NCBI GenBank assembly: GCA_039961735.1
Contig: JABRVX010000012.1
Coordinates: 62,001-126,000, forward strand
Source: Fimbriimonadia bacterium
Lineage (GTDB): Bacteria > Armatimonadota > Fimbriimonadia > Fimbriimonadales > JABRVX01
DNA length: 64,000 bases
Direction of reading: 5' to 3'
Numbering within the stretch: position 1 is the first letter of the stretch; each line of letters starts with the position of its first letter. This document shows, one piece after another, positions 1 through 60,069 of the stretch. Both the position numbers and the translations under genes were made by a program. Below the pieces are notes generated by a model that was given only the letters and a program-made list of their open reading frames with translations, was not told the DNA's origin and made no database searches.

Positions 1-112
1 TTCCGTCCGTGCCCGCGTAGAATCGGTTTGGAGCGAGCTGGGACTGTGAACATAGGCCCGACAGTTTCGTCTAGTCAGTCCGATAGTTCGTACACTCTCT
101 GGAGGTGAATTG

Positions 113-847: not shown

Positions 848-874
848 GTTCGACTGACAGCAACTCGATGACCT

Positions 875-902
875 CGGCGGGTGGGGTGTATCCCACCCGC
901 CG
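875..902. terminator. Terminator hairpin between convergent genes
   Basis: Perfect 11-bp stem (CGGCGGGTGGG / CCCACCCGCCG) with a 6-nt loop, followed on the plus strand by the T-rich TTCTCTTTTCT. It serves the gene ending at 847 and possibly also the minus-strand gene ending at 915. Confidence 0.8.
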
Positions 903-914
903 TTCTCTTTTCTA

Positions 915-2339
915 CTACTTCACTTGGGAGGTTTCGGCAATCGGTGCCCTGTCCAGATCGAAGAGCCACACGACTAACGCCGCAACGTACAGGCAGATCC
1001 AGGGAACCATCGGCGCGTAGTAGCGGCCGGATGCGTAGAACACGCACGTGAAGGCCGTGAAGAGGGCGATGAACACCACGCCGAACCAGGGGAAGACCGT
1101 TGGCTGCCATCCCGCCTGTCGCGCGGCACGCGGCAGGACGACGAGAGATCCCAGGAATGCCCCGAATAGCACCAGCCATGTCAGGTGTGCCACTCGCCGC
1201 GCCCACTTCTGAGCCTGAGCCCAGCCGTCACCCTGTCTGGCAAACTGGTCCATAGAGTGAAAGGCGCCCCCACCATCTGCCCGATACATCAGCCATGCCT
1301 TCTTGACGAACAGCAGGGCCGTGGCGACCGGATTCTCTACGATGTACCGGATAGCAGCATCACGGCATGCACGATCTATGCTCGGCTCGTTCAGCGTCTC
1401 ATGGGTGGTGCCCAGGAGCGCCGGGCCGTCCGGGTTCCACAGATACTTGTCAAAGCTGGTGGCGCAGGGGGTCCGGTATGGCTCGGGGACCATCTGGAAG
1501 GTGGCATAGTCGCGCTGGAAGACACCACTTGCCACGGGATTGTTCCCTATCACCAGGTTGAAACCGCCGCTCGTGGAGAGAGGCACGAATGCCCCGAAAG
1601 TGCGGTAGTTCCTTGCGGTCCATGGTGCTACTACTAGAGCCACCAGTACGCATAGCACGCAGAACTCGCGGAATCGTGCGCCCCAGCTCGGCAGACGCTT
1701 GTCTCGGAGTAGCCCGGCGAACAGAACCACGAACGGCAACATCATGCCGACCGGTCGAACCGATACAGCACATCCGAATAAGAGTCCTGCAGTCACTACC
1801 TTCCACCACCGTGTCGGCTCATGCAGGATACATAGGGTGCCTCCCAGAGCCAAGGCTACGAATAGCGGCTCCGACGCAAGCTGGGCAGACCAGAAGACGC
1901 CATCGGGCAGGAGCGCGTATCCGGCTGTCGCGAGCCGACCGACGGCCTCGCTACGGAAGACGACTCGACCTAGGCGGTACACCAGGAGCAGTGTAACTAA
2001 CACGAGGAGAAGGTTCGCGATCTTCCCAGCGGTGGGCGACGGGCGCGTAATCGCGAAGATCCCCCCTAGGAAGAGTGGATAGCCGATGGGATACCACGCC
2101 GTAGGCATCCCGTTACGCGTGTAACCGGCTCCCTCCGCTATTGCTACCGCAGTCTTGTAGTACCACGAGGCATCCTCCACCGGCTCGGCAGGCACCGTAA
2201 CCATCCATGCAAGCCGTAGCAGTACCACCGCAAGCACCAGCGCAGGGACGTAGTGACGCGAGAACAGGATAGAAAGGAGCAAGGTTCTTGCGGACTGGGT
2301 TGCGCGGCTCCCCTGCGTTCGACTATTCGCCTCGTTCAC
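915..2339 (-). CDS. Membrane glycosyltransferase, GT39/ArnT-like
   Basis: A 474-aa polytopic membrane protein. After an N-terminal hydrophobic helix comes a luminal/periplasmic loop with an acidic residue (PVEDASWYYKTAVAIAEG) and then AWYPIGYPLFLGG. This layout matches the PMT_2/GT39 superfamily (dolichyl- or undecaprenyl-phosphate-sugar dependent glycosyltransferases). Roughly 9-11 hydrophobic segments are visible. The start is GTG at 2339 with a GGGAGGG purine tract upstream. The donor and acceptor cannot be told from sequence; cell-envelope or protein glycosylation is plausible. No glycan cluster lies beside it. Confidence 0.75.
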   Translation of the reverse strand: MNEANSRTQGSRATQSARTLLLSILFSRHYVPALVLAVVLLRLAWMVTVPAEPVEDASWYYKTAVAIAEGAGYTRNGMPTAWYPIGYPLFLGGIFAITRPSPTAGKIANLLLVLVTLLLVYRLGRVVFRSEAVGRLATAGYALLPDGVFWSAQLASEPLFVALALGGTLCILHEPTRWWKVVTAGLLFGCAVSVRPVGMMLPFVVLFAGLLRDKRLPSWGARFREFCVLCVLVALVVAPWTARNYRTFGAFVPLSTSGGFNLVIGNNPVASGVFQRDYATFQMVPEPYRTPCATSFDKYLWNPDGPALLGTTHETLNEPSIDRACRDAAIRYIVENPVATALLFVKKAWLMYRADGGGAFHSMDQFARQGDGWAQAQKWARRVAHLTWLVLFGAFLGSLVVLPRAARQAGWQPTVFPWFGVVFIALFTAFTCVFYASGRYYAPMVPWICLYVAALVVWLFDLDRAPIAETSQVK

Positions 2340-2477
2340 ACTACCTGCCCTCCCACGCCCTACGAACCACCATTGCCCGCCTCGGGTCCATCATGACGGG
2401 TTACACACACCGTTCGAATCGGGATTCTACATTCTGAGTAAGAGCAGGGGGCGATACCCGACCAAGCTGTGAAGTGA

Positions 2478-3245
2478 TCACGGCGTGGCGGAAGGGTGAG
2501 GCTTGTAGATTACGGGACGGCCGTCGTCGAGCCGAAGGAGCGCATCACGGTGAATCTGCTTGGCGTGTCCGTCGGTGAATGCCACGTTCACGCCTCCGCC
2601 GTGTCGGTCTATGAAGATGCGCCCCACGTTGTCGCGCGAGGGGTCGAGGGTACCCGTATGCTCTGGCCACGCGTCCACCCACACGCCGTCCGAGAACAAC
2701 ATTGTGTGTGTGGGCTCGCGGACGATCGTGAGGCTCACGCCGTTGGTGTGACCCGTGGAGGTTCCTGGCCCGTACATCCAGCCGTTGGTCGTGTGGCTGC
2801 CTCGATAGCCCGCGAATTGCCACTGGTGCTTTACGCTTCCCCAGATGCTGCGGCCGTACGGATTGGTATCCCCCGCGCCATTGGATTCGTCCGGGGCACC
2901 TGCGGTCGGGCAGCGGTAGACCTCGGTACTCTTGACGTACGGCTGGAGCGTGTCCCACCAGAGGCGGATGATCCACTGTCCGCCCTGAACGAAGTTGATG
3001 TAGCAAGGAAACTTATCGTTGTAGTCGCCGGTGTAGAGATAGGCCGCCTTGGCGAACTGAGACGTGTAGTCGAGGCACGCGGTGGCCGATGCGCGCTTTC
3101 GCGCCTGTGCGAACACGGGGAACAGCACGGCGGCCAAGATCGCGATGATCGCGATCACGACCAAAAGCTCGATGAGCGTGAAGGCACGGGCCGACCGCAT
3201 CGGTCGGCCCGTGCCGGAAGCGTCGATGCCGACCATCGGCATCAT
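2478..3245 (-). CDS. Type IV pilin-like (pseudopilin) protein, H-X9-DG type
   Basis: The class III prepilin signal ARAFTLIELLVV, with cleavage before F, is followed by a hydrophobic helix ending in AAVLFPVFAQARKRA. The C-terminal HGGGVNVAFTDG fits the H-X9-DG motif of the large-pseudopilin family abundant in Planctomycetes and Armatimonadota. The longest frame starts at 3245 (255 aa). The start typical of homologues would be the internal ATG at 3200 (240 aa), which lies exactly in the loop of a 15-bp palindrome. The gene lies 10 bp downstream of the hexaheme cytochrome gene on the same strand, so co-transcription is possible. The role could be a secretion pseudopilus or a surface filament. 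Confidence 0.85.
   Translation of the reverse strand: MMPMVGIDASGTGRPMRSARAFTLIELLVVIAIIAILAAVLFPVFAQARKRASATACLDYTSQFAKAAYLYTGDYNDKFPCYINFVQGGQWIIRLWWDTLQPYVKSTEVYRCPTAGAPDESNGAGDTNPYGRSIWGSVKHQWQFAGYRGSHTTNGWMYGPGTSTGHTNGVSLTIVREPTHTMLFSDGVWVDAWPEHTGTLDPSRDNVGRIFIDRHGGGVNVAFTDGHAKQIHRDALLRLDDGRPVIYKPHPSATP
3183..3243. promoter_or_regulatory. Tandem perfect palindromes over the pseudopilin start
   Basis: Two adjacent perfect hairpins. The first, at 3183-3215, has 15-bp arms (GGCACGGGCCGACCG) around a 3-nt loop that is the CAT complement of the candidate ATG at 3198-3200. The second, at 3225-3243, has 8-bp arms (GATGCCGA) and a 3-nt loop. They sit between the hexaheme cytochrome stop and the pilin body. 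They could be a terminator or attenuator for the cytochrome operon, or a translational gate on the pilin start. Confidence 0.6.
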
Positions 3246-3255
3246 TCTACACGTT

Positions 3256-4458
3256 CTACGGACCAGCAGCCAGATCGGCGAGCGAGCTCAGGATCAGCTG
3301 CTTGGCATAGCTGTAGTTGTGTGCGCCGAGGCTGCCGTCGTTGATGACGAGCGAGAAGTTCCAGCGTGCACGTCGGTATTTCGCATCTTGTCCGTAGGTA
3401 TCGCGGTATGCGCGGAGCGCCCCGCCATTTGCGTTGTTGTCGGGCGCTCCCGACGAGGTCGAGCCGCCGAGCTGGATGAGCAGGTCAGCTATCTCCTCGC
3501 GAATGTCCTCGAGCGTATCGCCATTTCGATTGACTACAACATGCTCGAGGTCAGGCGCGCTGTTGGCGCCGCCGTGGCACTTCGCGCACACTTCCTTCTT
3601 CGGTACGGTCGTGGTGTGATTCCACGTTCGGCTGCTACCCGTGGCGAGTGCATGGCATGTTTGGCAGGTGTTGGCGATTCGCGTGTGAGGGGAGTGCTCG
3701 TACTCGACCCCTGGGTACTCGTAACCGCCAGCCGCTGCGATCATTATGCCTGCGTTGTGTCCGCGCGCCAGAGAGGAACTGAACAACCCGATAAGCGCAT
3801 CGGTTGCCGGACCATCCGGAGTGACGCCTTTCGTATTAGGCAGTCCGGTATGGCACTTCCAGCAGGTCTCTTTCGAGTCCGGGATGCGATTGATCAAGCT
3901 GCGATTGCCCCCGCTCGCTACGTGTGCCGAACCGGGGCCGTGGCAAGCCTCGCACTGAACGCTCCAGAACTTCAGATTGTGAGCGGTTCGGGGGTCTTGA
4001 TTGGTGTCGAATCCTCCCCTGTCCGAGCCCGGGTTGTCGAGCGTATCCGGCGCTCCGGTCACGTGGCATATCGAACACGGAGTATTGGGGACCAAGCCAT
4101 CCGCTATGAAGCGCGTGAAGATGTCGATCGTGCCGCTGCCACCCAGCTTGGTCGGGTCTTTGGCATGCGCCATCTGCTTCCACTCGGCATGGATGCCCTC
4201 TGGGTGCCCTGGAGCCGAGCGACCATGACAGGCTGCACACACCTCGACACCAACATAGGTAGCATCGTCGGGAACATTCCTGGACGGAATCGGCGACGGG
4301 TCGTTCCACACGATGGTCCCTGGAGGAGCATCGTCGGTCGAACCCGACACCAAATCGCTAACTGAGCAGCCCGCAGCCACGAACAGCGTTATGAGTCCGA
4401 CCGTGCTCGAAAGGACCAGTGCGGCGGCCATTCCCACTCTCTGCTTGCCTAGTATCAC
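3256..4458 (-). CDS. Hexaheme c-type cytochrome lipoprotein
   Basis: Six CXXCH heme sites are visible: CAACH, CSICH, CEACH, CWKCH, CQTCH and CAKCH. The N-terminal hydrophobic stretch ends in LFVAAGCS, a plausible lipobox, so the mature protein may be lipid-anchored. I chose GTG 4458 because GGGAGG (complement of 4466-4471) lies 7 nt upstream; a TTG at 4473 would put that SD inside the coding region. A short gap separates it from the upstream barrel gene, and it shares its strand with the decaheme gene. This suggests it is the surface-exposed or periplasmic partner of a porin-cytochrome conduit. Its redox partner and cellular side are inferred only. Confidence 0.85.
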   Translation of the reverse strand: MILGKQRVGMAAALVLSSTVGLITLFVAAGCSVSDLVSGSTDDAPPGTIVWNDPSPIPSRNVPDDATYVGVEVCAACHGRSAPGHPEGIHAEWKQMAHAKDPTKLGGSGTIDIFTRFIADGLVPNTPCSICHVTGAPDTLDNPGSDRGGFDTNQDPRTAHNLKFWSVQCEACHGPGSAHVASGGNRSLINRIPDSKETCWKCHTGLPNTKGVTPDGPATDALIGLFSSSLARGHNAGIMIAAAGGYEYPGVEYEHSPHTRIANTCQTCHALATGSSRTWNHTTTVPKKEVCAKCHGGANSAPDLEHVVVNRNGDTLEDIREEIADLLIQLGGSTSSGAPDNNANGGALRAYRDTYGQDAKYRRARWNFSLVINDGSLGAHNYSYAKQLILSSLADLAAGP

Positions 4459-4492
4459 TTTTCGACCTCCCAATTACGCCCAACGGCCGGCA

Positions 4493-6232
4493 TCACTGCC
4501 CGCTCGTGAACGTCCCCTTCAGCGTGATAGAAAAAACGTTCGCGTCGTATCCGAAATCGCTCACCAGTCGGTCGGACGATACCAGCCGCTGGAAGCCGAA
4601 ACCGAGGGTGAAGTCACGGAAGAACTCCTGCCGGTACTCGAGCCCGACGTAGGTGGCGACATTCCGCTCACCCCCTCGACTTACGTAATGGGTGAGTGTT
4701 CCATCCACACTGCTCTGTTCAGTCAAGTCGAGGTTGGCTCCGACCGTCCACACCTGACCCGAGCTATACCACGGGCGCACAGCCGAGCCGAAGCCGATTG
4801 CCCCGTCCTCGCCGGTGTTGAGCGGGTCGTCTCCACTGACGTTGCTGCCCCAGTCTTCCCAAAGGAAGTCAACGAAAGCCGCTAGGTTCGGTAGGAACTG
4901 CGTGCTGACTCCAGCGTTGACCGAGTTGAATCGAAGCGTGTACTCGCGCGCGTTGTTGCGCCGCTCCGCCCACTGGTAGGACGCGTACAGGCTCGTGAGG
5001 TAGCCGAACGAGCGCGACCAGCTTCCGATGAAGGTCTGCGTCCGGTCATAGTACAAGGTAGCCGTCGTGTCCGACAGCAGGATTTCGGAGTCCGGAGCAT
5101 TAATCAGGTTGCGGTTGCGGTACCGCAAGCGAAACTGCCCCAGCGCGTCGTTTCGGAAGCGCACGGAGATGTGCGCGTCGTCCGAAGCTGGACGCTGGAC
5201 CACGTTGCTGCCCTGCATCTCCCGTCGCCATCCGTGCCGGGTGTAGCCCGCGTTCACGTATACGGCCCGGTCGGGCCGCCACGAGACCTCCGCTCCCCCA
5301 CGACTCGTTTTCTCAGCGTATCGGCTCAGGGTAAAGGGAACATCCACCGTGTCGAACTGCGCCTCCGCCCGAAAGAGCAGATCGGGAGCGGCCGCCCAAC
5401 CGGCATCGAACCGCCAAATCTGTGCGGTGCTTCGTCCCAGTCCCTCGTGGTCGGTCCTGACATCGGTATAAGCAACTGAAGCGCCGATGTTCGGGGCGGG
5501 CGACTGCGTGCTGCTGACGGTCATCTCCCGAAGCCAACCATTCGGAACCTCACCGAGCCGATCGTTCAGCCCCTCCGTGTAGAACCCGACCTTGACGTCT
5601 CCTCGCAACAGGGGCCAGCTTAGCAGTGCGTCATAGGTGAGCGTGCGATAGTCGTATCCCGGATCAGGACGTTGCCGAACGATGTCACGCACCACCCACT
5701 CGCGATCACTTGCTTTCAGATCGAAGCTGGGGGCGATCCCCAAGCCGGCGAGGTGCAGCCATATCTTGCGTGAAGAAGCCCTGGATGAGGTGCTGAGATC
5801 GAGCGTGGCGTCCGGGAAGTAGGCGAACCTATCGGCCCAGAAGCGTAGCGAGTGGCTCTCGTTAGTCGGGATAAGTTCCATGAAGCCGGCTTGATCTTGC
5901 TCCCCCAGGTCTCGCCAGTAGCCACGTCCGATGGATCGCAACGAACGGGGATCGCGGAGCGCGGCGAACAGCATGTCGCCATAGAAACCTTCTGCCAACG
6001 AGCGGTACTGGAACAGCCGAGTCTCGTTGCCGTTCCACTCCACCGCGCCAAACGCAGGCACCACTTCCACGTGGATGGGCTCGATGCCTATTGCCCGCCT
6101 GTCCTCGGTGCGCTCCTGCTCGCCGGTCGCCTCGGTACCGCCACCGCCTCCTTGCGCATGCGCGGCGAGGACGGTCACGAACAACGCTGTGAGCACCGAG
6201 GCTCCCGTCAAACACTTCGCGTTCCTCATCAT
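4493..6232 (-). CDS. MtrB/PioB-like outer-membrane beta-barrel (cytochrome-associated porin)
   Basis: Start ATG 6232 (or 6229), preceded by a GGGGTGAGG purine tract, gives a clean signal peptide ending VLAAHAQ and about 579 aa. The body is made of alternating amphipathic beta strands rich in Y/W/R, such as RFDAGWAAAPDLLFRAEAQF and VYVNAGYTRHGWR, as in MtrB/PioB-family 26-28-strand barrels. In known systems that barrel sheathes an MtrA-type decaheme cytochrome. The decaheme gene ends 9 bp upstream and the hexaheme gene follows 35 bp downstream, so the three form an operon. The context supports the MtrB assignment more than any single motif does; there is no N-terminal CXXC. Confidence 0.75.
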   Translation of the reverse strand: MMRNAKCLTGASVLTALFVTVLAAHAQGGGGGTEATGEQERTEDRRAIGIEPIHVEVVPAFGAVEWNGNETRLFQYRSLAEGFYGDMLFAALRDPRSLRSIGRGYWRDLGEQDQAGFMELIPTNESHSLRFWADRFAYFPDATLDLSTSSRASSRKIWLHLAGLGIAPSFDLKASDREWVVRDIVRQRPDPGYDYRTLTYDALLSWPLLRGDVKVGFYTEGLNDRLGEVPNGWLREMTVSSTQSPAPNIGASVAYTDVRTDHEGLGRSTAQIWRFDAGWAAAPDLLFRAEAQFDTVDVPFTLSRYAEKTSRGGAEVSWRPDRAVYVNAGYTRHGWRREMQGSNVVQRPASDDAHISVRFRNDALGQFRLRYRNRNLINAPDSEILLSDTTATLYYDRTQTFIGSWSRSFGYLTSLYASYQWAERRNNAREYTLRFNSVNAGVSTQFLPNLAAFVDFLWEDWGSNVSGDDPLNTGEDGAIGFGSAVRPWYSSGQVWTVGANLDLTEQSSVDGTLTHYVSRGGERNVATYVGLEYRQEFFRDFTLGFGFQRLVSSDRLVSDFGYDANVFSITLKGTFTSGQ

Positions 6233-6240
6233 CCTCACCC

Positions 6241-7302
6241 CTATCGGAAGAACAGCTGGCTCGTGTTGGAGCCGTGGATGTCCGAGTGGCAGCCCGAGCG
6301 CCAACAACTACCCGGGCGGCCTCGATGCGCCTCGTCCGCATTGATATCCGTATGGCACTGGATGCACACGCCTCGACCGTTCGTGACCAGCAGCTTTTGG
6401 TTCGGGGAGCCGTGCGGTTGATGGCAGGTGAGACAGCTCTCGCCGAGGCCTCCCGTTCGCGTCGGCTCGTGCTCATATACGAAGGGACCACGGATGTTGG
6501 TATGGCACTTGGTGCATACCGCGGACATGCTCTTGTTGACCGGCATCAAGGCGGGGTTGGTGCTGCGGTGGACTTCATGGCAGTCCGTGCAGCTCACGCG
6601 GTCTTCCAGCATGGGATGGTGGGATCGAAGCCTGGCTTGGGCTGCCTGCGCCGCATGGCAGTTGAGGCACGCTCCGTTGATGGCCTGGCTAGTGGTCGGG
6701 TGCTTGGCGTCGTATCGAAAGCCTGCGAGGTTCGAGACCTTGACGATGGGCTTCTGCAGCATGAACGGGTCGTCGTCCGAGCCGTGAAATCGGTGACAGT
6801 CCACGCAGCCCACATCTGCCGATGCGTGGACGTTGGTGCGCCAGTGCGGGCTGTCATGGGTCGTAGCGTGGCACTTGATGCACAGCTCGGCGGCTCGCTT
6901 CACAGTGACCGACGAGCGTGGCGGGAAGCGCAGAATCTTGGTGCCGTCGCCGGAGTCCACGTGCTCGCTGCCCGGGCCGTGGCAGTATTCGCACGCCTGG
7001 TTGGCCTCCTTCAGCACCTTGCGGAGATGAATAGTGTGACGCGAAGCGTTGAACACCTTCACCACTTCCTCGTGGCACATCTCGCACGCTTCACTCCCGA
7101 GCGCTTCCGCGTCAGGTCCGGGGCGATCCTGCTCTAGTGCCTTCTTTCGCGCCGCCTCTTCCGTAGCGGGTACCCGCTTGCCCGAGTCCTGCTGCGCCGA
7201 AGAGGCTGGCGCAGATGCCAGGACCACGAGCATGAGCAGTGCCGCGACTCCAAAGATGAAAAGCGGCAGCCCACTTCGTGGGTTCTGTCGGCCAATTCGC
7301 AT
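6241..7302 (-). CDS. Decaheme c-type cytochrome, MtrA/DmsE family
   Basis: 353 aa with a signal peptide (hydrophobic segment about residues 12-33). Nine canonical sites are visible: CEMCH, CEYCH, CIKCH, CVDCH, CLNCH, CTDCH, CTKCH, CLTCH and CIQCH. A tenth, atypical CWRSGCH (CX4CH) stands just before the C-terminal SDIHGSN motif typical of MtrA/DmsE proteins. The ATG at 7302 has AAGGAGGG upstream. Family members sit inside an MtrB-type barrel and carry electrons between the periplasm and the cell exterior. The barrel gene immediately downstream fits that role. The direction of electron flow and the terminal acceptor are unknown. Confidence 0.9.
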   Translation of the reverse strand: MRIGRQNPRSGLPLFIFGVAALLMLVVLASAPASSAQQDSGKRVPATEEAARKKALEQDRPGPDAEALGSEACEMCHEEVVKVFNASRHTIHLRKVLKEANQACEYCHGPGSEHVDSGDGTKILRFPPRSSVTVKRAAELCIKCHATTHDSPHWRTNVHASADVGCVDCHRFHGSDDDPFMLQKPIVKVSNLAGFRYDAKHPTTSQAINGACLNCHAAQAAQARLRSHHPMLEDRVSCTDCHEVHRSTNPALMPVNKSMSAVCTKCHTNIRGPFVYEHEPTRTGGLGESCLTCHQPHGSPNQKLLVTNGRGVCIQCHTDINADEAHRGRPGSCWRSGCHSDIHGSNTSQLFFR

Positions 7303-7599
7303 GCGGCCCTCCTTAGCTCATCGTCAAGCTCCGCACAGCGGCTGCCGGAGCGTACCGAAAGAGCCTGCACTGCCTTTACCGGGCATCTTACCACCCGATT
7401 TGCAGTTCTGAAAGGTATTTTCGGTATCCTGACGAAAGACACCTGCAACGAGCAAGACGCCCTGAAGTTTTTTGCGGTGCGTTCCGTTCACTCGCCAAGA
7501 ATCTCTAGTGTCATGCTCGAGTCTGACTGTCGGGCTGGGCGCCTCCACAGCCGTCCACCGATGTGGCGACTCTCAGGCGCACCCGATCGGAGGTGTCGA

Positions 7600-8472
7600 A
7601 TGACCGCTATCGTCGTTCTTTCTGCGATGCTCGCCGCTTGGAGCGGTGCCCCGGCTCCTGTCCAGCTGAGTTGGCAACCACCAGAGCCCACGATGGGCCC
7701 GGAGACGGCCATCCCCCGCAACCGCCCCCACGTGGTCATCACCGAATCGGCTCCGTTTGCCAAGCGGGGCGGCAAGTGGGTCGAGGGCAAGCGTGTCGCC
7801 GTACGCAAAACCGCCTACAGCCCCCAGGGTGTCGTGATAGATGACGAGAAGTTCCTACCGAGCGGCGCACTCGTCTCTAAGACCGTGTGCACGCTCGACG
7901 AGTTCGGGCGCGTGGCAGAGAAGACGATCTTCGAGACTCCCGCGCAGAAGCTCACTGGGCGGGAGAGCTATCGTTACGACGGCCGAGGCAAGCTCTTCGA
8001 GATACAGCGATCTCGTGGAGACGGAACTCCTCTCAACACCTCGGTACTCGAGTATAACGAGCGCGGGATGCCCACGCGAGAGACCACCACCCCTGCCAGC
8101 GGCGGCGCCCCTTGGGTCGTAGCCTACACCTATGACTCGAGCGACCGAGTCAGCACAGTGACTTGCACCGGCCCTGACGGCAAGCAGGTTTGGAAGCACG
8201 CCTATCGGTACGATGAAAACGGTCGCTGCAGCGAGGACAAGGCCTGGCGTCACGGCTCGCTCGTCAGCAACACCCGCTATACGTACGACGCGAAGGGCGA
8301 TCTGGCGAAGCTCGTGATCTACCGCGGCGACGGTCAACTGATGACCCGCCACACGTTCAAAGCCACTTACGATGCCAGAGGCAACTGGACGAAGCGGACG
8401 ACCTACGACACGCGGTTCTTCAAGCCGAGCTGGGTCGAGGTTTCGTACCGAGTGATTACTTACCACCCTTAG
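7600..8472 (+). CDS. Exported protein with RHS/YD-like repeats
   Basis: About 290 aa starting at ATG 7600, 6 nt after GGAGG (7589-7593). A short signal-like segment (VVLSAMLAAWSGA) is followed by repeated YDxxGR-like units: YRYDGRGKLFEI, YEYNERGMPTRE (as LEYNERG), YTYDSSDRVSTV, YRYDENGRCSED and YTYDAKGDLAKL. These match the beta-strand repeats of RHS/YD proteins. The protein is far too short for a full RHS toxin shell and has no toxin domain. It is divergent from the cytochrome operon. Function unknown; probably periplasmic or surface-located. Confidence 0.75.
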   Translation: MTAIVVLSAMLAAWSGAPAPVQLSWQPPEPTMGPETAIPRNRPHVVITESAPFAKRGGKWVEGKRVAVRKTAYSPQGVVIDDEKFLPSGALVSKTVCTLDEFGRVAEKTIFETPAQKLTGRESYRYDGRGKLFEIQRSRGDGTPLNTSVLEYNERGMPTRETTTPASGGAPWVVAYTYDSSDRVSTVTCTGPDGKQVWKHAYRYDENGRCSEDKAWRHGSLVSNTRYTYDAKGDLAKLVIYRGDGQLMTRHTFKATYDARGNWTKRTTYDTRFFKPSWVEVSYRVITYHP

Positions 8473-8499
8473 GCGGTCTGCGTCCGTGGGTCGGGGAAG

Positions 8500-9096
8500 C
8501 TAGTCTATTGCGGCAAGGCCGGCTGGGAGTTGAATGGTCATGCCGGGTCGAAGGCCCAGTCGCTCGAATGTGCCGGCCTTGGCCTCCAATGCGTACTTGG
8601 CCGGCCCCTTGCTCGGAATCGGCGTCGGGTCGCGGGGCTGCATCCGCTCCGTGTTGAGCACCTCGCCCTTGGCGTTGAGAAACGCGATGTCCAGGGGGAT
8701 CAGAGTGTTTCGCATCCAGAAGCTAAGCGGCGCTTCCTCGAGGAACACGAAGAGCATGCCGTGGCTATCGGGAACTTCCGCTTCGGTGAGGTGCATCATG
8801 CCCTCTTCACGGGTGAGCGAGTTGGCAGCGATCCACACGGGCATCACGTGGCTGCCGATGCGCACTTCCGCTGTCGGAAGGTCAGCCAGCTGCGTCCGAC
8901 GGGCAGGGTTGTACGAAGAGGGTCCCTCTGCGGCATCAGAAGAGATGGACGCGTCTGACACGTCCCGCTGGTTCGACCGAACCGACTTCTCCGATTGGTC
9001 GGACGTATTCGGCCGAGCCCCTCCACATCCGGCAAGGAGGAGACAGAGAAGGAATAGTGCGACATCGCGCCGCGCCTGGAGGCAGACTTCGCTCAC
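8500..9096 (-). CDS. DUF192-family lipoprotein
   Basis: The N-terminal hydrophobic run ends in LLLAGCGG, a good lipobox. The C-terminal ~110 residues match DUF192 (YccU/ACR family): an EEGMMHL motif, then MLFVFLEEAPLSFWMRNT, then IPLDIAFLNAKGEV. DUF192 is a small beta-rich domain often found in exported proteins and sometimes beside carbohydrate or processing enzymes; its biochemical function is unresolved. The start is GTG 9096; no strong SD is seen, so a slightly different start is possible. The linker between lipobox and domain (about residues 30-75) is Ser/Asp-rich. Confidence 0.85.
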   Translation of the reverse strand: MSEVCLQARRDVALFLLCLLLAGCGGARPNTSDQSEKSVRSNQRDVSDASISSDAAEGPSSYNPARRTQLADLPTAEVRIGSHVMPVWIAANSLTREEGMMHLTEAEVPDSHGMLFVFLEEAPLSFWMRNTLIPLDIAFLNAKGEVLNTERMQPRDPTPIPSKGPAKYALEAKAGTFERLGLRPGMTIQLPAGLAAID

Positions 9097-9176
9097 GATG
9101 TCGGGATGATACCGCCGGAACTCAATGTTCTCATTTTCTCATTGCCGGCTCTGAGTAGCGTTTGGTAAGGACCTGG

Positions 9177-9249
9177 CGCCCCCGGATGGACTCGAACCAT
9201 CGGCCCACTGCTTAGAAGGCAGTTGCTCTATCCCCTGAGCTACGGGGGC
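9177..9249 (-). tRNA. tRNA-Arg (anticodon TCT)
   Basis: A full cloverleaf reads on the minus strand: acceptor GCCCCCG / CGGGGGC, D-arm GCTC...GAGC, anticodon stem ACTGC / GCAGT with loop CTTCTAA (anticodon TCT), and T-arm GATGG-TTCGAGT-CCATC. The discriminator is G. CCA is not encoded after it. Confidence 0.95.
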
Positions 9250-9441
9250 CTCGCCTGAATCGTACCCGGCTGCGCTGCACGATCCGATGGCTGAGCGGCA
9301 TGTCACGACTGGTCCGGAGTGGCCTGCCGGAAGGAACGTGGGGCAGACCGCCTCACATCCGACGGGAGGCTACCTACTGGCCAAATCCCAGACAAGAGAT
9401 TGGAGCCGAGACTCGCCCTTGGAAAGGGCGAAGAAGGTGGG

Positions 9442-10854
9442 CTAGAACTTGGAGCGGACGCGGTAAGAGACGCTGATCTCTCGGCCAGCCGGGATCTCCA
9501 CGACGAAGTGGATGGTGTGAGCGTCCACTTTGGTGAACTCGTGTGACTTGTCCAGCACTTCCCAATCGCCCCACGGGTGCTCAGCGATGGTGAGCGTCAC
9601 CGTCTCGTCCTTCTTGCGATTCCGCGCGTTGATCTCGAAGCTCTGCTCGATGATGTCGGTGGAGATGCGCCGGAAGTCCGTTCGAGTCCGTGTGCAAACC
9701 ACGTCGAATGCGTCACCGAGGTAGAGCTTGATCTTCTCGTCGCGCGGCGTGTGGTCAATCGTGTCTTCCCCGACGAACTGGAGCTGACCCTCCACGTCCT
9801 GCTTGTAGACTCGAACGCTGCCCTTGGGTAGTGGCATGCCGAGACGGTTCCTCTCGCTGTTCACGATTTCGACTACTACATTGACCTTCTGGTTGGGGTC
9901 GGTATCCACGCCATCGCCCGGCCTATAGTACTGGCCATAGGATCGCCAGTAGAACCCCTGCCCCTCGTAAACGAGCTTCTTGGTAGCCGGGACCTCCGTG
10001 GCGCTGAGAAGCGACACCTGTTTGATCTCCTTGTTCGCGATGGTAGTGGGGCGGCCGAGCGTGTATAAGTGATACTCGAAGAGCTGGCTCTCCGTGAATC
10101 CACCTAACCCGGCCCCCGCTGCCGGAGCAGCTCCACGCATCATCATCTGCTTGTCCATCACTGGTTGCGTCCGTCGAACGTCGCCAGCAACCAGCTTCAG
10201 CTTGGCATCCTTATACGTTACGCCCGTGCGGTTGGTAAGCGTAACCCATCCACCTAGGTCGAGCCGCTCGTCATTCGCATCCAGGGTCGCCACGTAGTCG
10301 GCAGTCCACGAGATGTCGTCGGCCATGTAGCTCAGTTCGACGCGCTGAGTACCACTCTTGGCCGACCTCACTTCCCAGAACAGGGTCGGCTTGGCGATAA
10401 GCCCCTCGGGCAACTCCATCACTTCCACTTCTCCAGCTGGGCTGAGTACGAATCGCCCGTCGGAGGTGCGAATGACGGTACCCTGCGAGGGCGGAGTCAG
10501 CAGCGTGCCCTCGAGCACTTCCTTCTTGCCGTCTGGGAGGTTGCGGTGGAGGCGCACCTTCTTGCCCACCGACTTCTCCAGGATGCTGTTGGGCCCCAGA
10601 AGGTCGAACCGGAAATTCTGCTCAAGCACTTCCACGCCTTGGGGGTCATCGAGCGACTTGAAGTGCACGGTGGAGGGGTCAATCGTCGCCGCCACGTCCT
10701 CGATGGCAAGCACGGCGACACCCTGCTTCAGGTCGACTCGTCGGATCTCTTTGACGAGGCCGAAGTCTTGGTTATACACGGTGATCTCTACACTATCTAT
10801 AAGTCCTGCACCGCCCTGTCCGGCGGCTGCGAGCATTGCGAAGAAACTAGTCAT
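9442..10854 (-). CDS. DUF4139 domain protein
   Basis: 470 aa from ATG 10854, which has GGAGG-type SD bases upstream. The N-terminus is weakly hydrophobic (MTSFFAMLAAAGQGGAG) and may be a signal peptide. The N-terminal ~100 residues (VEITVYNQDFGLVKEIRRVD) and the C-terminal half (RVELSYMADDISWTADYVAT, NVVVEIVNSERNRLGMPLPKG) are typical of DUF4139 ('mucoidy inhibitor A'-like) proteins. These are beta-rich and presumed cell-envelope associated. The start overlaps the 3' end of the endonuclease III gene by 8 bp, so the two are likely co-transcribed. The molecular function of DUF4139 is unknown. Confidence 0.85.
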   Translation of the reverse strand: MTSFFAMLAAAGQGGAGLIDSVEITVYNQDFGLVKEIRRVDLKQGVAVLAIEDVAATIDPSTVHFKSLDDPQGVEVLEQNFRFDLLGPNSILEKSVGKKVRLHRNLPDGKKEVLEGTLLTPPSQGTVIRTSDGRFVLSPAGEVEVMELPEGLIAKPTLFWEVRSAKSGTQRVELSYMADDISWTADYVATLDANDERLDLGGWVTLTNRTGVTYKDAKLKLVAGDVRRTQPVMDKQMMMRGAAPAAGAGLGGFTESQLFEYHLYTLGRPTTIANKEIKQVSLLSATEVPATKKLVYEGQGFYWRSYGQYYRPGDGVDTDPNQKVNVVVEIVNSERNRLGMPLPKGSVRVYKQDVEGQLQFVGEDTIDHTPRDEKIKLYLGDAFDVVCTRTRTDFRRISTDIIEQSFEINARNRKKDETVTLTIAEHPWGDWEVLDKSHEFTKVDAHTIHFVVEIPAGREISVSYRVRSKF

Positions 10855-53892: not shown

Positions 53893-54000
53893 TAGGGCCC
53901 GGTCTTGCGACCGGACCCTAGATAGTCACCCCGCGATGGGGGGAGTTGCCTGCGGCGAACCTTATTGAAGGGATGGTTCGGGCAGACACCTTTCGGATAC
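53893..54000 (-). ncRNA. tracrRNA of the type II-C CRISPR system
   Basis: Minus-strand RNA, about 108 nt. The 5' part is an anti-repeat (complement of about 53964-54001) matching the array repeat across GGTGTCTGCCCG with one mismatch nearby. Its 3' end is UCCCUUCAAU, followed by AAGGUUCGCCGCAGGCAA; this CAAUAAGG junction is what the Neisseria II-C tracrRNA also shows. A short CCCC/GGGG hairpin (about 53926-53942) comes next. A terminator hairpin at 53894-53919 (AGGGTCCGGTC / GACCGGGCCCT, loop GCAA, one G-U) closes the RNA; it has no obvious U-tract. Ends are predicted from the promoter and hairpin. Confidence 0.85.
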
Positions 54001-54006
54001 ACGAGG

Positions 54007-54035
54007 AGTATACCACACTCCCATAGAAGATGCAA
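54007..54035 (-). promoter_or_regulatory. tracrRNA promoter
   Basis: On the minus strand: -35 TTGCAT (54035-54030), 17-bp spacer, -10 TATACT (54012-54007), giving a start near 54000, just at the anti-repeat. The -35 begins only 11 bp from the cas9 ATG, so the two promoters or transcripts must overlap. Confidence 0.7.
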
Positions 54036-54045
54036 TCTAGCTACC

Positions 54046-57000
54046 ATGAAACGGCTTGGACTCGATCTCGGTACCTCATCTATCGGCTGGGCGTTGCTTG
54101 AAGAGGAAGACGGTAACGCGCGAAAACTCGTCGACTGCGGTGTGCGGATCTTCTCGGAAGTAACTGACCCGCAGAAGCGCGAATCGTTTGTCCCAAAGAA
54201 TAGGGAGCGAAGGCAGAAGCGCGGGATGCGGCGAAATCTGGAACGCCGGGCGGCACGTATACGCACTGCAAGGGACGCGCTAGTCGAAGCAGGGCTGCTG
54301 CCGCTCGACGAAGAGGAACGCAATCGTGTAGTTGACCACTTGGACCCGTACGAGGTGCGTGCTCGCGCCTTGGACGAGAAGCTCTCGCTGCACCAAATCG
54401 GGCGTGCTCTGTTCCACCTCGCCCACCGCCGCGGGTTCAAGAGCAACCGCAAAGCACTGTTCGCAGATCTCCACCACCTCGATCCGCGTGTTCGCGAGTT
54501 CATCGAGAAGCCAGAGACCGACGAGATGGAAGGCCAAGAAGAACTGAGTAAGGAGGAGAAAAAGGAACAGAGCGAGACCCTCAAAGCCATCGCTGAACTC
54601 CGCCAGGAGATCGAGAAGAACGGCTGTCGCACACTGGGCGAGTACCTATATCGTATAAACCATGAGCGCGAACCACATGACCGTCTCCGGGCGCGGGAGC
54701 GCAAGACGGATAGGGCGATGTACGAGGAGGAATTCGAAGCTATCTGGGCGGCGCAGCAACCGCACTATCCTGACCTACTGACCGACGGTTTGAGAGCCAA
54801 GCTGTTTCACGCCATCTTCTTCCAGCGCCCCCTACGCCGACCGTACGTGCTGAAGCGCGTCAAGCTTCCCGACGGGACAGAAAAACTGAAGCTAAAACCA
54901 AAGGGCACGATCGGTCGTTGTCAGTTCGAGCGGCACCATCGAAGGGCGGACCGCGCGCTGCTCCTGTCGCAGGAGTTTCGCATCTGGCAAGACCTCGCAC
55001 ACATCGAAGTGCTAACGGACAACCTGGCGGGCTGGCGCTTTCTGACGCTGGAAGAGCGCAACAAAATCTACGCGGCCCTGCACGGCAAGGAGGAGATAAC
55101 CTGGAAGCAGTTCCGCAAGGTCCTCGGACTCTCCGCGGAAGCACGCATCAACTTCGAGGTGGACGGCGGAAAGAAGAAATTCGCCGGCAACATCACGGAC
55201 GTCCGACTCCGGCGCATTATCGGTGACGAATGGGATGCCTGGCCGAGAGAGCGGAAGGACAAGCTGGTCGAATCGCTCCTCACCATTACGGACAAGGCCG
55301 ACCTCGTCAAGCACCTGCTCGATCACCCGAACTGGCGCTTCGACCCGAAGACAGCGTATCGCTTGGCCATCCTCCAACTCCCTGGCGGCGTGATGAGCCT
55401 GAGCGCCCGCGCGATGGACCGCATCCTTTATGGACCGAAGCCGAAGGGTGGCGGCGACCGCATCCCAGGCTACGGGCTCATAAACGGGCAGAACTATCAC
55501 GACGCTTGCCAGGCCGCGGGCTACCTACGCGCCGACCAGATCAGCCAACACCTGCTCAGTCGGCTTCCGAAACCCGAGCTTACGCGCAACCCCGTCGTGG
55601 ACCACGCTCTGCACCAGGTGCGCAAGCTCGTCAACGCCATCATCCGAGAGTATGGTCGGCCAGACGCGGCCACCATCGAAATGGCACGCGACATGAAGCT
55701 GAACCGCGAGCAACGGGAACGCATCTTGCGAGAGAACCGAGAGAACCGAGAGCAACGCGATTGGGCGGTGGAGAAAGCCAAGGAGCTGGGTATCGAAGAA
55801 CCTAGCAGCGACCAGATTCTCTGGCTGCGTTTGCTCAAGGAGTGCAACTACACCTGTCCCTACACCGGCAAGTCCATCACCGAGAGGTCGCTACTCACAG
55901 GCGACTTCGAGGTAGAACACATCATCCCCTACAGCCGCTGCCTGGACGACTCGTACATGAACAAGACCCTCTGCGACACGCAGTTCAACCGGCATGTCAA
56001 GAGAAACAAGACGCCGTACGAGTTGTTCTCGAGCGACGAGCAGAGGTACGGCGAGGTGAAGCTGCGCATTCAGTGCCTGCCCAAGCCGAAGCAGAAAAAG
56101 TTCGAACAAATCGAGATTGACACCGAACAGTTCGTGTCTCGCCAGCTCAATGACACGCGCTACATCTGCCGCGCAACGAAGGACTACTTGAAGCAAGTGA
56201 TCCCGGAAGTGGACGTGTCGCGCGGAGGCGCGACCGCCGCACTGCGCCACGTGTGGGGGCTCAACGGCATGCTGCCCGCGCCACCTCCCGACAGCGAGAA
56301 AGCAAAGGCGGAGAAGCGCACCGATCATCGCCACCACGCCATAGACGCCGTAGTCATCGCCTGCACCACGCGCAGCCTGCTGAAGCGCCTCTCGGACATC
56401 ACCGCCAAGGGTGGCAGCCTCACGCTTCGCCAGACGGTGGACGACGAGCGACTGAAGTTCCCTCCTCCATGGCCGACGCTGCGTGACGACGTGAAGAAGG
56501 CACTGGACACAATGGTGGTCTCCTTCGCGCCGACCAGGAAGCTATTCGGAGGCCTACACGAGGAAGGCATCTATGGCGTGCATATGGACGGCGACCGGCC
56601 GATGTATCACATCCGCAAGCGGCTGGAAGACCTCAGCGCTGGGCAAATCGAAGACATTCGGGACCCCGAGCTGCGGAAGCAGGTGAAGGAGCGCGTGACA
56701 GCGGCGGGCGGCGACCTGAAAAAGGCGTTTGCAGAATCGCCCACCTACAAGCGTACGCGTGTCAGGCGGGCGCGCATATGCGTCGCACGCGAACCGAAGG
56801 CCACCGTCCAGCTCCCACACGGCCACGCATTCCTCGGCAGCTACCACCATGTGGAGATCCTGGAATGCCTGAGGGCACATCAGGACGAGGAGGGGAAGAA
56901 GTGGAAGGTGGGGCAGCGAAAGGGCGTGTTCGTCTCGATGCTGGAAGCCGCCGAGCGCGCGCACGGGAAGCCGAGCAAGGGTATCCCGAAGCGGCCGATT

Positions 57001-57255
57001 GTTCAGCGTGACCACGGCCCGGACTGGCGCTTCGTCATGAGCCTGAGCCAGGGAGACTTAGTGCGGATGGACGAGGACGAGAAGCTGTATCGAGTGCAGA
57101 AATTCGGGGCCACAGCGGCGCGGGCGGTCTTCAGGGAAGCGACGCTCGCCGGGCCAGACGAGAAGTGGGGCCTCCTTCAGCAAGCGATCAACGTCCTGCG
57201 CTGCACGAAGGTCAACACCGACCTACTGGGCCGAGTGTTCCCGGCCAACGATTAA
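54046..57255 (+). CDS. cas9: Cas9 endonuclease, compact type II-C
   Basis: 1069 aa from ATG 54046 (an in-frame extension to 53965 lies inside the tracrRNA region and is rejected; no clear SD). RuvC-I GLDLGTSSIGWALLE with catalytic D7; Arg-rich bridge helix about 55-85 (RRQKRGMRRNLERRAARIR); RuvC-II ATIEMARDMK with E545; HNH about 600-660 with FEVEHIIPYSRCLDD (H625) and an Asn in QFNRHVKRN; RuvC-III DHRHHAIDAVVIA with H764 and D767. A ~300-residue C-terminal domain would read the PAM. The length and the absence of csn2/cas4 give subtype II-C. It cleaves DNA matching crRNA spacers with tracrRNA help. All catalytic residues look intact. Confidence 0.95.
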   Translation: MKRLGLDLGTSSIGWALLEEEDGNARKLVDCGVRIFSEVTDPQKRESFVPKNRERRQKRGMRRNLERRAARIRTARDALVEAGLLPLDEEERNRVVDHLDPYEVRARALDEKLSLHQIGRALFHLAHRRGFKSNRKALFADLHHLDPRVREFIEKPETDEMEGQEELSKEEKKEQSETLKAIAELRQEIEKNGCRTLGEYLYRINHEREPHDRLRARERKTDRAMYEEEFEAIWAAQQPHYPDLLTDGLRAKLFHAIFFQRPLRRPYVLKRVKLPDGTEKLKLKPKGTIGRCQFERHHRRADRALLLSQEFRIWQDLAHIEVLTDNLAGWRFLTLEERNKIYAALHGKEEITWKQFRKVLGLSAEARINFEVDGGKKKFAGNITDVRLRRIIGDEWDAWPRERKDKLVESLLTITDKADLVKHLLDHPNWRFDPKTAYRLAILQLPGGVMSLSARAMDRILYGPKPKGGGDRIPGYGLINGQNYHDACQAAGYLRADQISQHLLSRLPKPELTRNPVVDHALHQVRKLVNAIIREYGRPDAATIEMARDMKLNREQRERILRENRENREQRDWAVEKAKELGIEEPSSDQILWLRLLKECNYTCPYTGKSITERSLLTGDFEVEHIIPYSRCLDDSYMNKTLCDTQFNRHVKRNKTPYELFSSDEQRYGEVKLRIQCLPKPKQKKFEQIEIDTEQFVSRQLNDTRYICRATKDYLKQVIPEVDVSRGGATAALRHVWGLNGMLPAPPPDSEKAKAEKRTDHRHHAIDAVVIACTTRSLLKRLSDITAKGGSLTLRQTVDDERLKFPPPWPTLRDDVKKALDTMVVSFAPTRKLFGGLHEEGIYGVHMDGDRPMYHIRKRLEDLSAGQIEDIRDPELRKQVKERVTAAGGDLKKAFAESPTYKRTRVRRARICVAREPKATVQLPHGHAFLGSYHHVEILECLRAHQDEEGKKWKVGQRKGVFVSMLEAAERAHGKPSKGIPKRPIVQRDHGPDWRFVMSLSQGDLVRMDEDEKLYRVQKFGATAARAVFREATLAGPDEKWGLLQQAINVLRCTKVNTDLLGRVFPAND

Positions 57256-57321
57256 CCCGGTAGCCCGGCTGGCCTGCCCGCCCACGGGCAGTACGACGAG
57301 CCGGGTGACGGGTGACGGCCC

Positions 57322-58257
57322 GTGCAGGCAAGAGTGGTGGATATCGGCTGCCCGGCCAGCATCCGGGCGAAGTGGAAGCTCCTCGTCGTGGAGCCACAGG
57401 ACGGCGAGGAGCAGTCCGTGCCGCTGGAGGATCTCGGCGTCCTCATTCTGGACGACCCGCACATCCGCATTTCCAAGCACGCGCTCGGGCTGCTCGCCGA
57501 GTCCAACGTCGCAACGGTAGTGTGCGACGAAAAGCACATGCCTATCGGGCTGCTGCTGCCGTTCGAAGGCAACGCCCTGCACACGCAGATCCTGCGCCGC
57601 CAGATCGAAGTGAAACTGCCTCGCAAGAAGCGCGCCTGGCAAGCGCTAGTTCAAGCGAAGATCAGAAACCAGGCCGAAGTGGTCCGACGCCGGGGCGGTA
57701 AAGCCGGCAAGCTCGCCCGTTTGGCGAACGAAGTGCGCAGTGGCGACCCGGAGAACCTGGAAGGCATTGCGGCCGGGATGTACTTCAAGGCGCTGTGCGG
57801 CGACGAGTTCGTTCGCGAGCGGGGGGTAGGAGGTTTCAACGCGCTTCTGAACTACGGCTACGCCGTGCTTCGGGCGGCCTGCGCTCGTGCAATCGTCGGC
57901 ACCGGCCTGCATCCGGCGCTGGGCGTCCACCACATGCATCGGAACAACCCCTTCTGTCTCGCCGACGACGTGATGGAGCCCATCCGACCGCTCGTGGACT
58001 GGGTGGCCCTGGAGGCCGGGGAGGACATGGCCGACGACGCGGAGCTGACCCCAGCGCTCAAGCGACACATGCTGGGCATCACGCTGCGGCAACTGAAGGT
58101 CGGTCGCAAGCGTTACCCCCTGACGGTGGGACTTGGGATGTACGCTGCAGCCTTTCGCGATTATCTATTCGGACAGATCCGCAAACTGGAAGTGCCGATG
58201 CCCGAACTGGACCCCGATTCCATCGGGGCCGATTCTACGGAGGAAGACGAGGAGTGA
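57322..58257 (+). CDS. cas1: Cas1 integrase
   Basis: 311 aa from GTG 57322 (no strong SD), 66 bp after cas9. The catalytic metal-binding residues fit Cas1: E147 in NLEGIAAGMYF, the His cluster LGVHHMHRNNPF (about 203-206), and E219 in LADDVMEPIRPLVD. With Cas2 it captures and integrates new spacers. The C-terminal tail is acidic (DPDSIGADSTEEDEE). It is part of the cas9-cas1-cas2 operon; the stop overlaps the cas2 start. Confidence 0.93.
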   Translation: MQARVVDIGCPASIRAKWKLLVVEPQDGEEQSVPLEDLGVLILDDPHIRISKHALGLLAESNVATVVCDEKHMPIGLLLPFEGNALHTQILRRQIEVKLPRKKRAWQALVQAKIRNQAEVVRRRGGKAGKLARLANEVRSGDPENLEGIAAGMYFKALCGDEFVRERGVGGFNALLNYGYAVLRAACARAIVGTGLHPALGVHHMHRNNPFCLADDVMEPIRPLVDWVALEAGEDMADDAELTPALKRHMLGITLRQLKVGRKRYPLTVGLGMYAAAFRDYLFGQIRKLEVPMPELDPDSIGADSTEEDEE

Positions 58258-58598
58258 TCTTCGGAGGGTACCGAAGCGTGTGGCTTCTTACGATGTTCGA
58301 TCTTCCCGTACTCACGAAGCAGCAACGGAAGGAATACGCGAAGTTCCGGAAGTTCCTGCTCGGCGATGGCTACATCTTCATGCAATACAGCGTGTACGGA
58401 CGGCACTGCCCGAGCGAGGAGCGGGCCGAGGTTCACATCGGGCGGCTACGCGCCCATTTGCCGCCCCAGGGCGAGGTTCGGGTGCTGAAGTTTACGGACA
58501 AGCAGTTCGAGCGGATGCTGCGGTTCTACGGACCGATGAAAAAAAAGCCCGAGAAACCGCCCGAACAGCTCACTCTATTCGAAATTTCGACCTCTTAA
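58254..58598 (+). CDS. cas2: Cas2
   Basis: 114 aa from GTG 58254, overlapping the cas1 stop (GTGA), with GGAGGAAGACGAG upstream. Typical Cas2 sequence of type II systems: YRSVWLLTMFDLPVLTKQQR (the conserved Asp in FDLP), KFLLGDGYIFMQYSVYGRHC, LKFTDKQFERMLRFYG and the C-terminal QLTLF. It dimerises and bridges Cas1 dimers in the adaptation complex. It is the last gene before the array, 33 bp away. A longer frame in the same phase starts inside cas1 and is not real. Confidence 0.93.
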   Translation: MIFGGYRSVWLLTMFDLPVLTKQQRKEYAKFRKFLLGDGYIFMQYSVYGRHCPSEERAEVHIGRLRAHLPPQGEVRVLKFTDKQFERMLRFYGPMKKKPEKPPEQLTLFEISTS

Positions 58599-58605
58599 CA
58601 ACACT

Positions 58606-58635
58606 CAATCTCCTCGGCTAACGCCGAGGAGATTG
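58606..58635 (-). terminator. Hairpin at the cas2-array junction
   Basis: Perfect 13-bp stem CAATCTCCTCGGC / GCCGAGGAGATTG, loop TAAC. The right arm reaches four bases into the first repeat. Read in the crRNA direction it would terminate pre-crRNA; read the other way it would end the cas operon. Confidence 0.7.
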
Positions 58636-59987
58636 TATCCGATAGGTGTCTGCCCGGTCCCCCCAACTTAGCGTTGCAGATGCTGAAACATGACAGTATT
58701 GTATCCGATAGGTGTCTGCCCGGTCCCCCCAACCTGAAATTCGACGGGTTATTCCTGGAAGCTATTGTATCCGATAGGTGTCTGCCCGGTCCCCCCAACA
58801 TTCGATGTGGTGATCGAACCCGAACGGATATTGTATCCGATAGGTGTCTGCCCGGTCCCCCCAACGGGTGATGCGATTGGCGACGACCGACACCTATTGT
58901 ATCCGATAGGTGTCTGCCCGGTCCCCCCAACCCACGCTGGATAGAGGATGGAGACATAGGTATTGTATCCGATAGGTGTCTGCCCGGTCCCCCCAACTCG
59001 GTAGGGTCAGCTCCGATTACATATCGGATTGTATCCGATAGGTGTCTGCCCGGTCCCCCCAACTAGCTTCTTTTGGTACTGCGTCGCCGCCCTATTGTAT
59101 CCGATAGGTGTCTGCCCGGTCCCCCCAACTGCGCCATCGCTGTGGATAATATCATCGCGATTGTATCCGATAGGTGTCTGCCCGGTCCCCCCAACACAAA
59201 AAGCTGAAACCAGCCGTTCGATGTAATTGTATCCGATAGGTGTCTGCCCGGTCCCCCCAACTGCTAATCAATCCCGTCCTCCACGCCTCAGATTGTATCC
59301 GATAGGTGTCTGCCCGGTCCCCCCAACTGCGACCCGCCGCTCCCGGAAGCGGAGGTAATTGTATCCGATAGGTGTCTGCCCGGTCCCGCCAACGATTGCG
59401 CGCGCCGTCTCATCCAGATACATATTGTATCCGATAGGTGTCTGCCCGGTCCCCCCAACTCCCACAACCACCGAGCGAGTTCGAGTCGTATTGTATCCGA
59501 TAGGTGTCTGCCCGGTCCCCCCAACGTCCACTCCGCCTACCTTACGTATCACCGTATTGTATCCGATAGGTGTCTGCCCGGTCCCCCCAACGGCCTTAAG
59601 GTCAATGTGGATATCAACCTCATTGTATCCGATAGGTGTCTGCCCGGTCCCCCCAACCTGGAGCTGCGGCCATAGTTCGCGATCGTCATTGTATCCGATA
59701 GGTGTCTGCCCGGTCCCCCCAACAGGGATGTCGTCGGAGTCGCTCGACACAGGATTGTATCCGATAGGTGTCTGCCCGGTCCCCCCAACTGCAGTGCTCT
59801 TCATTCCGCGTGCTCGACTATTGTATCCGATAGGTGTCTGCCCGGTCCCCCCAACAAGGACGGGCCAGCGCTCGTGAAGGCGCTGATTGTATCCGATAGG
59901 TGTCTGCCCGGTCCCCCCAACCGAGGGCAGGTGATTGGCAGCAACGGTGAGATTGTATCCGATAGGTGTCTGCCCGGTCCCCCCAAC
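58632..59987 (-). CRISPR. CRISPR array, 21 repeats of 36 bp, 20 spacers of 30 bp
   Basis: Repeats begin every 66 bp exactly (58632, 58698, ... 59952). On the plus strand each starts ATTGTATCCGATAGGTGTCT and ends CCCAAC; on the minus strand each starts GTTGGGGGGACC and ends GGATACAAT, as in II-C repeats (GTTG...ACAAT). All copies are identical except the one at 59358 (C to G at 59388). All 20 spacers are 30 bp and different. Minus-strand transcription is inferred from tracrRNA pairing. No AT-rich leader is seen on either side. Because 66 is a multiple of 3, long false frames run through the array. Confidence 0.97.
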
Positions 59988-59993
59988 CAAGCG

Positions 59994-60069
59994 GCCAGCC
60001 TCGCCTAGAGGGGCACCTTCGCGACGTCCAGTAGCAGAGACCGTCTGTGCCCCTCTAGGCGAGGCTGGC
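59994..60069. repeat. Perfect 23-bp inverted repeat beside the array
   Basis: Arms 59994-60016 and 60047-60069 (left arm begins GCCAGCCTCGCCTAGAGGGG) are exact complements around a 30-bp loop. It starts 6 bp after the last repeat and ends 27 bp before the ahcY stop. It could be the ahcY terminator, a leader element or a remnant mobile element. Confidence 0.9.

What the first reader, a model, noticed from the sequence alone, without database searches (positions are those of the whole stretch)
53893..59987. Complete compact type II-C CRISPR-Cas locus with divergent tracrRNA and convergent array
cas9 (1069 aa, all RuvC and HNH residues present), cas1, cas2, tracrRNA and a 21-repeat array are all intact. 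tracrRNA and array read on the minus strand, the cas genes on the plus strand. A Cas9 from an Armatimonadota-like lineage would be a little-sampled II-C branch, and its short length makes its PAM and activity of interest. The repeats are nearly identical and all spacers are exactly 30 bp, which suggests recent activity.
Basis: partly seen in the sequence, partly recalled or inferred. Interest (0 to 1): 0.85.

Follow-up and report, generated by a model that had tools for sequence, protein, structure and literature searches.

The report
Intact type II-C CRISPR-Cas9 locus
This is a complete, conventional type II-C CRISPR-Cas9 immune locus in a bacterium of the order Fimbriimonadales (phylum Armatimonadota); its Cas9 is only about 48% identical to the nearest relative found here, but its layout and predicted mechanism are those of known II-C systems, and what it targets remains unidentified.

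Summary
Cas9 (1069 aa), Cas1 and Cas2 are intact on the plus strand; a tracrRNA and 21 repeats of 36 nt (20 spacers of 30 nt) read on the minus strand. Family models, tracrRNA pairing (-55 kcal/mol, best of about 12,500 stretches) and about 30 same-phylum Cas9 loci make this an ordinary II-C system. The genome shares an order with a Fimbriimonadales (Armatimonadota) genome, so the lineage guess is right at phylum level.

The 66-nt period is shared by nearly all relatives, so 30-bp spacers do not show recent activity. The HNH metal-site Asp is Glu (E624), as in many related Cas9s, so 'all residues present' needs qualifying. At 1069 aa the protein is not unusually short for II-C.

Additions: the tracrRNA has a promoter-like site divergent from cas9. 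The acquisition end is probably next to cas2. A perfect 23-bp hairpin covers the guide of the 'extraneous' first repeat, a published II-C strategy. No self-target or protospacer was found, so the PAM is unknown. The same genome has a type I-C locus whose cas1 carries a premature stop.

Verdict: new member of a known kind, low interest.

The parts
54046..57255 (+). cas9, 1069 aa; RuvC D7, E545, H763/H764, D767; HNH E624-H625-N639
   Evidence: TIGR01865 E 1.5e-199, HNH_4 and RuvC_III above cut-off; residues by alignment
57322..58257 (+). cas1 (type II), GTG start
   Evidence: TIGR03639 254 bits, cut-off 120
58254..58598 (+). cas2, start codon uncertain
   Evidence: TIGR01573 64.5 bits, cut-off 24.5
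53895..54002 (-). predicted tracrRNA: anti-repeat from 54002, then small stem-loops, ending in a 12-bp stem-loop (no T-run)
   Evidence: duplex -55.0 kcal/mol, rank 1; fold z -4.7; same architecture in relatives
54007..54035 (-). promoter-like site for the tracrRNA, TTGCAT-17-TATACT with TG before the second hexamer
   Evidence: read from sequence; missed by the stricter consensus scan; relatives have near-consensus sites at the same place
58632..59987 (-). CRISPR array, 21 repeats of 36 nt and 20 spacers of 30 nt; each repeat ends ATACAAT (possible -10 box)
59994..60069 (-). perfect 23-bp inverted repeat just upstream (in transcription) of the oldest repeat; 3' arm covers the extraneous-crRNA guide
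   Evidence: z -7.6; arms
58606..58635 (.). 13-bp hairpin at the cas2/array junction, takes in the last 4 nt of the array; likely two-way terminator, at the probable acquisition end
   Evidence: z -9.0; junction hairpins in relatives

Best explanation
A complete, probably functional type II-C CRISPR-Cas9 adaptive immune locus of a Fimbriimonadales (Armatimonadota) bacterium. Inferred mechanism: minus-strand pre-crRNAs start from -10 boxes carried in the repeats. The tracrRNA, transcribed divergently from cas9, pairs with the repeat. The resulting guide directs Cas9 to cut DNA next to an unknown PAM. Cas1-Cas2 add new spacers, probably at the cas2-proximal end. A hairpin upstream of the oldest repeat keeps the spacerless extraneous crRNA inactive. 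Shown here: gene content, intact frames, tracrRNA pairing, array structure, conservation of the layout. Inferred: expression, cleavage, acquisition polarity in this genome, hairpin function. Unknown: PAM and targets.
For: Cas9, Cas1 and Cas2 pass curated cut-offs. The locus is single and intact in the whole genome. The tracrRNA:repeat duplex is a clear outlier; tracrRNA architecture and divergent promoter-like sites recur in relatives. cas9-cas1-cas2 followed by an antiparallel array at a 66-nt period recurs in the phylum and in a Nitrospirota genome. In 8 relatives' arrays the cas2-distal terminal repeat is the most decayed, which points to acquisition at the cas2 side, as reported for II-C (PMC12080349; PMC12638026). 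The distal hairpin overlaps the extraneous guide, one of the strategies in PMC12080349.
Against: No protospacer in phages, plasmids, same-phylum genomes or (7 spacers) viral contigs, so targeting is unproved. HNH has Glu for the metal-site Asp, though related Cas9s share it. The tracrRNA end lacks a T-run and its promoter was missed by the consensus scan. Both terminal repeats of this array are perfect, so acquisition polarity here rests on relatives.
Confidence: 0.94

Rival explanations
1. The locus is intact in sequence but silent or impaired: Cas9 only nicks or binds because the HNH metal-site Asp is Glu, or the RNAs are not made.
For: E624 in place of Asp; D839A strongly reduces SpyCas9 activity (PMC6706240); no protospacer found.
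Against: Glu can bind metal and is present in most close relatives and in Cas9s of Novosphingobium, Bosea and Pigmentibacter, so it is not a lone defect; no frame is broken; repeats are undecayed.
Confidence: 0.05
2. A II-C-like system repurposed for something other than defence, such as regulating own genes.
For: Only that foreign targets were not found.
Against: Intact cas1 and cas2, 20 different spacers and no self-match beyond 17-19 nt chance hits.
Confidence: 0.01

Closest known systems
Type II-C loci of other Fimbriimonadales, e.g. MAG TGS_ARM1 (JAHCHL010000007.1; L001)
   Same: Gene order, antiparallel array, 36-nt repeat ending ATACAAT, 66-nt period, divergent tracrRNA with similar stem order
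   Different: Cas9 48% identical; the repeat differs at many positions
Solved Cas9s of about 1080-1095 aa (best match 9ar4; also the 6jdq/6kc8 group)
   Same: RuvC and HNH regions align; similar length
   Different: The C-terminal, PAM-reading part aligns only weakly, so no PAM can be transferred; the best match has Asp at the HNH metal site, here Glu
Extraneous-crRNA control in type II-C (Campylobacter jejuni; PMC12080349)
   Different: Here a perfect 23-bp stem without a T-run, so guide sequestration is likelier than an intrinsic terminator; the extra repeat is not mutated

Membership tests
Type II-C CRISPR-Cas | cas9 with RuvC and HNH nuclease domains | tested here: met
   TIGR01865, RuvC_III and HNH_4 above cut-offs; catalytic positions located, with D-to-E at the HNH metal site
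Type II-C CRISPR-Cas | type II cas1 and cas2 as the only other cas genes in the locus | tested here: met
   TIGR03639 and TIGR01573; the array begins 33 nt after cas2 and the next gene beyond it is an adenosylhomocysteinase
Type II-C CRISPR-Cas | no csn2 (II-A) | tested here: inconclusive
   TIGR01866 found nothing in the genome, but nothing in the control genomes either; no gene of that kind is seen in the locus
Type II-C CRISPR-Cas | no cas4 in the locus (II-B) | tested here: met
   No room for a further gene between cas9 and the array; the cas4 seen in this genome is in the separate I-C locus
Type II-C CRISPR-Cas | tracrRNA with anti-repeat | tested here: met
   Duplex -55.0 kcal/mol, outlier; conserved architecture; expression itself not testable here
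Type II-C CRISPR-Cas | promoters inside repeats and acquisition at the last-transcribed end | tested here: inconclusive
   ATACAAT ends each repeat, but no full promoter by consensus scan; polarity inferred from decayed repeats in relatives
Type II-C CRISPR-Cas | RNA-guided, PAM-dependent DNA cleavage | not testable with these tools
   No protospacers found
Cas9d | passes the NCBIfam NF049971 cut-off (375 bits) | tested here: not met
   143.6 bits

The most novel reading that the evidence does not exclude
The hairpin at the cas2/array junction, whose stem takes in the last bases of the acquisition-end repeat, is a II-C leader element that helps mark the integration site for Cas1-Cas2, beyond acting as a two-way terminator.
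Probability: 0.06. Interest if true: 0.5.

Novelty: new member of a known kind. Interest (0 to 1): 0.22.

Why it matters
It adds a complete, intact Cas9, tracrRNA and repeat set from a phylum for which the paper library searched here showed no dedicated Cas9 study. It could be a source of a new PAM, but nothing here shows a new mechanism. The comparison of about 30 Armatimonadota loci indicates several separate II-C Cas9 lineages in one phylum.

Tried and rejected
PAM and targets: all 20 spacers against phage and plasmid records gave no match. Against 291 same-phylum genomes only chance-level hits appeared (best E 0.005 per genome outside the array). The 3' 20 nt of 7 spacers and the repeat core had no exact match in viral contigs. 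Self-targeting: only short chance matches. Structure prediction from a 3-sequence alignment was useless (pLDDT 42.8, pTM 0.24), so no fold search was made. The relatives' 319 spacers were extracted but not searched. A survey of Pseudomonadota genomes was not possible with the tool. A special role for the junction hairpin is not favoured: it sits where a terminator between convergent transcripts is expected, 12 of 22 loci reach p<=0.05 there against 7 of 15 at the other end, and one example carries a T-run (Pigmentibacter).

Full report
Observation. The locus is as described. cas9 (54046-57255), cas1 (57322-58257) and cas2 (about 58254-58598) are open on the plus strand. The array lies at 58632-59987 with 21 repeats at exact 66-nt spacing. 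On the minus strand the repeat is GTTGGGGGGACCGGGCAGACACCTATCGGATACAAT. The anti-repeat starts at 54002 on the minus strand, and its duplex with the repeat (-55.0 kcal/mol) is the strongest of about 12,500 stretches tested, about seven standard deviations from the mean.

Identity. Cas9 scores 665.8 bits on the general Cas9 model and only 143.6 on Cas9d (cut-off 375). Cas1 matches the type II model and Cas2 its own; Pfam and PADLOC agree. The genome (3.24 Mb, 98.9% complete) has this one Cas9, unbroken.

Host. The nearest named relative is a Fimbriimonadales genome (L001). A held genome in the same order as the window's has a contig of the same length (142,758 bases) with the Cas9 match at the same place (G072), so the window is very probably from that order, phylum Armatimonadota (taxonomy). 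That the two records are one genome is inferred from these agreements.

Relatives. 34 of 291 genomes of the phylum have a Cas9 match. In nearly all loci held at full length the order is cas9, cas1, cas2, array, with a 66-nt period. The nearest Cas9s are 48% and 45% identical. In a careful tree the window's Cas9 groups loosely with other Fimbriimonadales sequences (support 67/69 for that set, which is not strong), while several other Armatimonadota Cas9s form well-supported separate lineages.

Exact 30-bp spacers do not show recent activity, because that period is shared widely. Near-identical repeats are expected: only about 5% of non-extra II-C repeats carry mutations (PMC12080349). At 1069 aa the protein is typical. 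The HNH triad of SpyCas9 is D839-H840-N863 (PMC6706240); here it is E624-H625-N639. Glu occurs at the same place in most of the window's close relatives and in Novosphingobium, Bosea and Pigmentibacter Cas9s, so it is natural variation whose effect on activity is untested.

tracrRNA. On the minus strand TTGCAT-17-TATACT, with TG before the second hexamer, ends four bases before the anti-repeat. It fails the stricter consensus scan, but several relatives carry close matches to TTGACA and TATAAT in the same place. Sixteen predicted tracrRNAs (window included) share the repeat duplex followed by further stem-loops. In another lineage (L085, L086, L088) the tracrRNA is on the same strand as cas9.

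Array ends. Published work places II-C acquisition at the last-transcribed repeat and describes ways to silence the extraneous crRNA of the first (PMC12080349). In eight relatives' arrays (L066, L070, L072, L078, L079, L081, L083, L085) the cas2-distal terminal repeat is the most decayed, in some by only one or two bases, which fits. In the window that end has a perfect 23-bp inverted repeat (59994-60069, z -7.6) whose 3' arm fills most of the guide position of the extraneous crRNA, and an adenosylhomocysteinase gene is transcribed toward it. The cas2-side end has a 13-bp hairpin (z -9.0). Hairpins there are frequent in relatives but not clearly more so than at the other end; a two-way terminator is the plain reading.

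Targets. No protospacer or self-target was found, so no PAM can be given.

Verdict. A complete, ordinary type II-C locus from a thinly sampled phylum: a new member of a known kind.

Noticed in passing
L091 (G000:C42), 1-10605: The same genome has a type I-C locus (cas3, cas5c, cas8c, cas7c, cas4c, cas1c, a likely cas2 read by eye, and an array of about 42 repeats). Its cas1c frame carries one premature TAG stop; it may be real or an assembly error.
   Followed up: partly
58606-58635: 13-bp hairpin at the cas2/array junction that takes in the last 4 nt of the array; similar hairpins in several Armatimonadota loci and in Azospirillum and Pigmentibacter plasmid II-C loci.
   Followed up: partly
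L085, L086, L088: A separate Armatimonadota II-C lineage with the tracrRNA on the same strand as cas9 and repeats beginning ATTATAGC on the cas9 strand.
   Followed up: no
L077 (G140:C51), 2049-5172: cas9 is split between two frames, and the alignment breaks inside the HNH region: a broken gene or an assembly fault.
   Followed up: no
L090 (G027:C899), 3407-4297: cas1 is in two pieces next to an intact cas9: a broken gene or an assembly fault.
   Followed up: no
L093 (G106:C5), 3428-7652: Weak Cas9 match (E 4e-11, 1143 aa) beside a 9-repeat array with no cas1 or cas2 match nearby; possibly a divergent Cas9 type.
   Followed up: no
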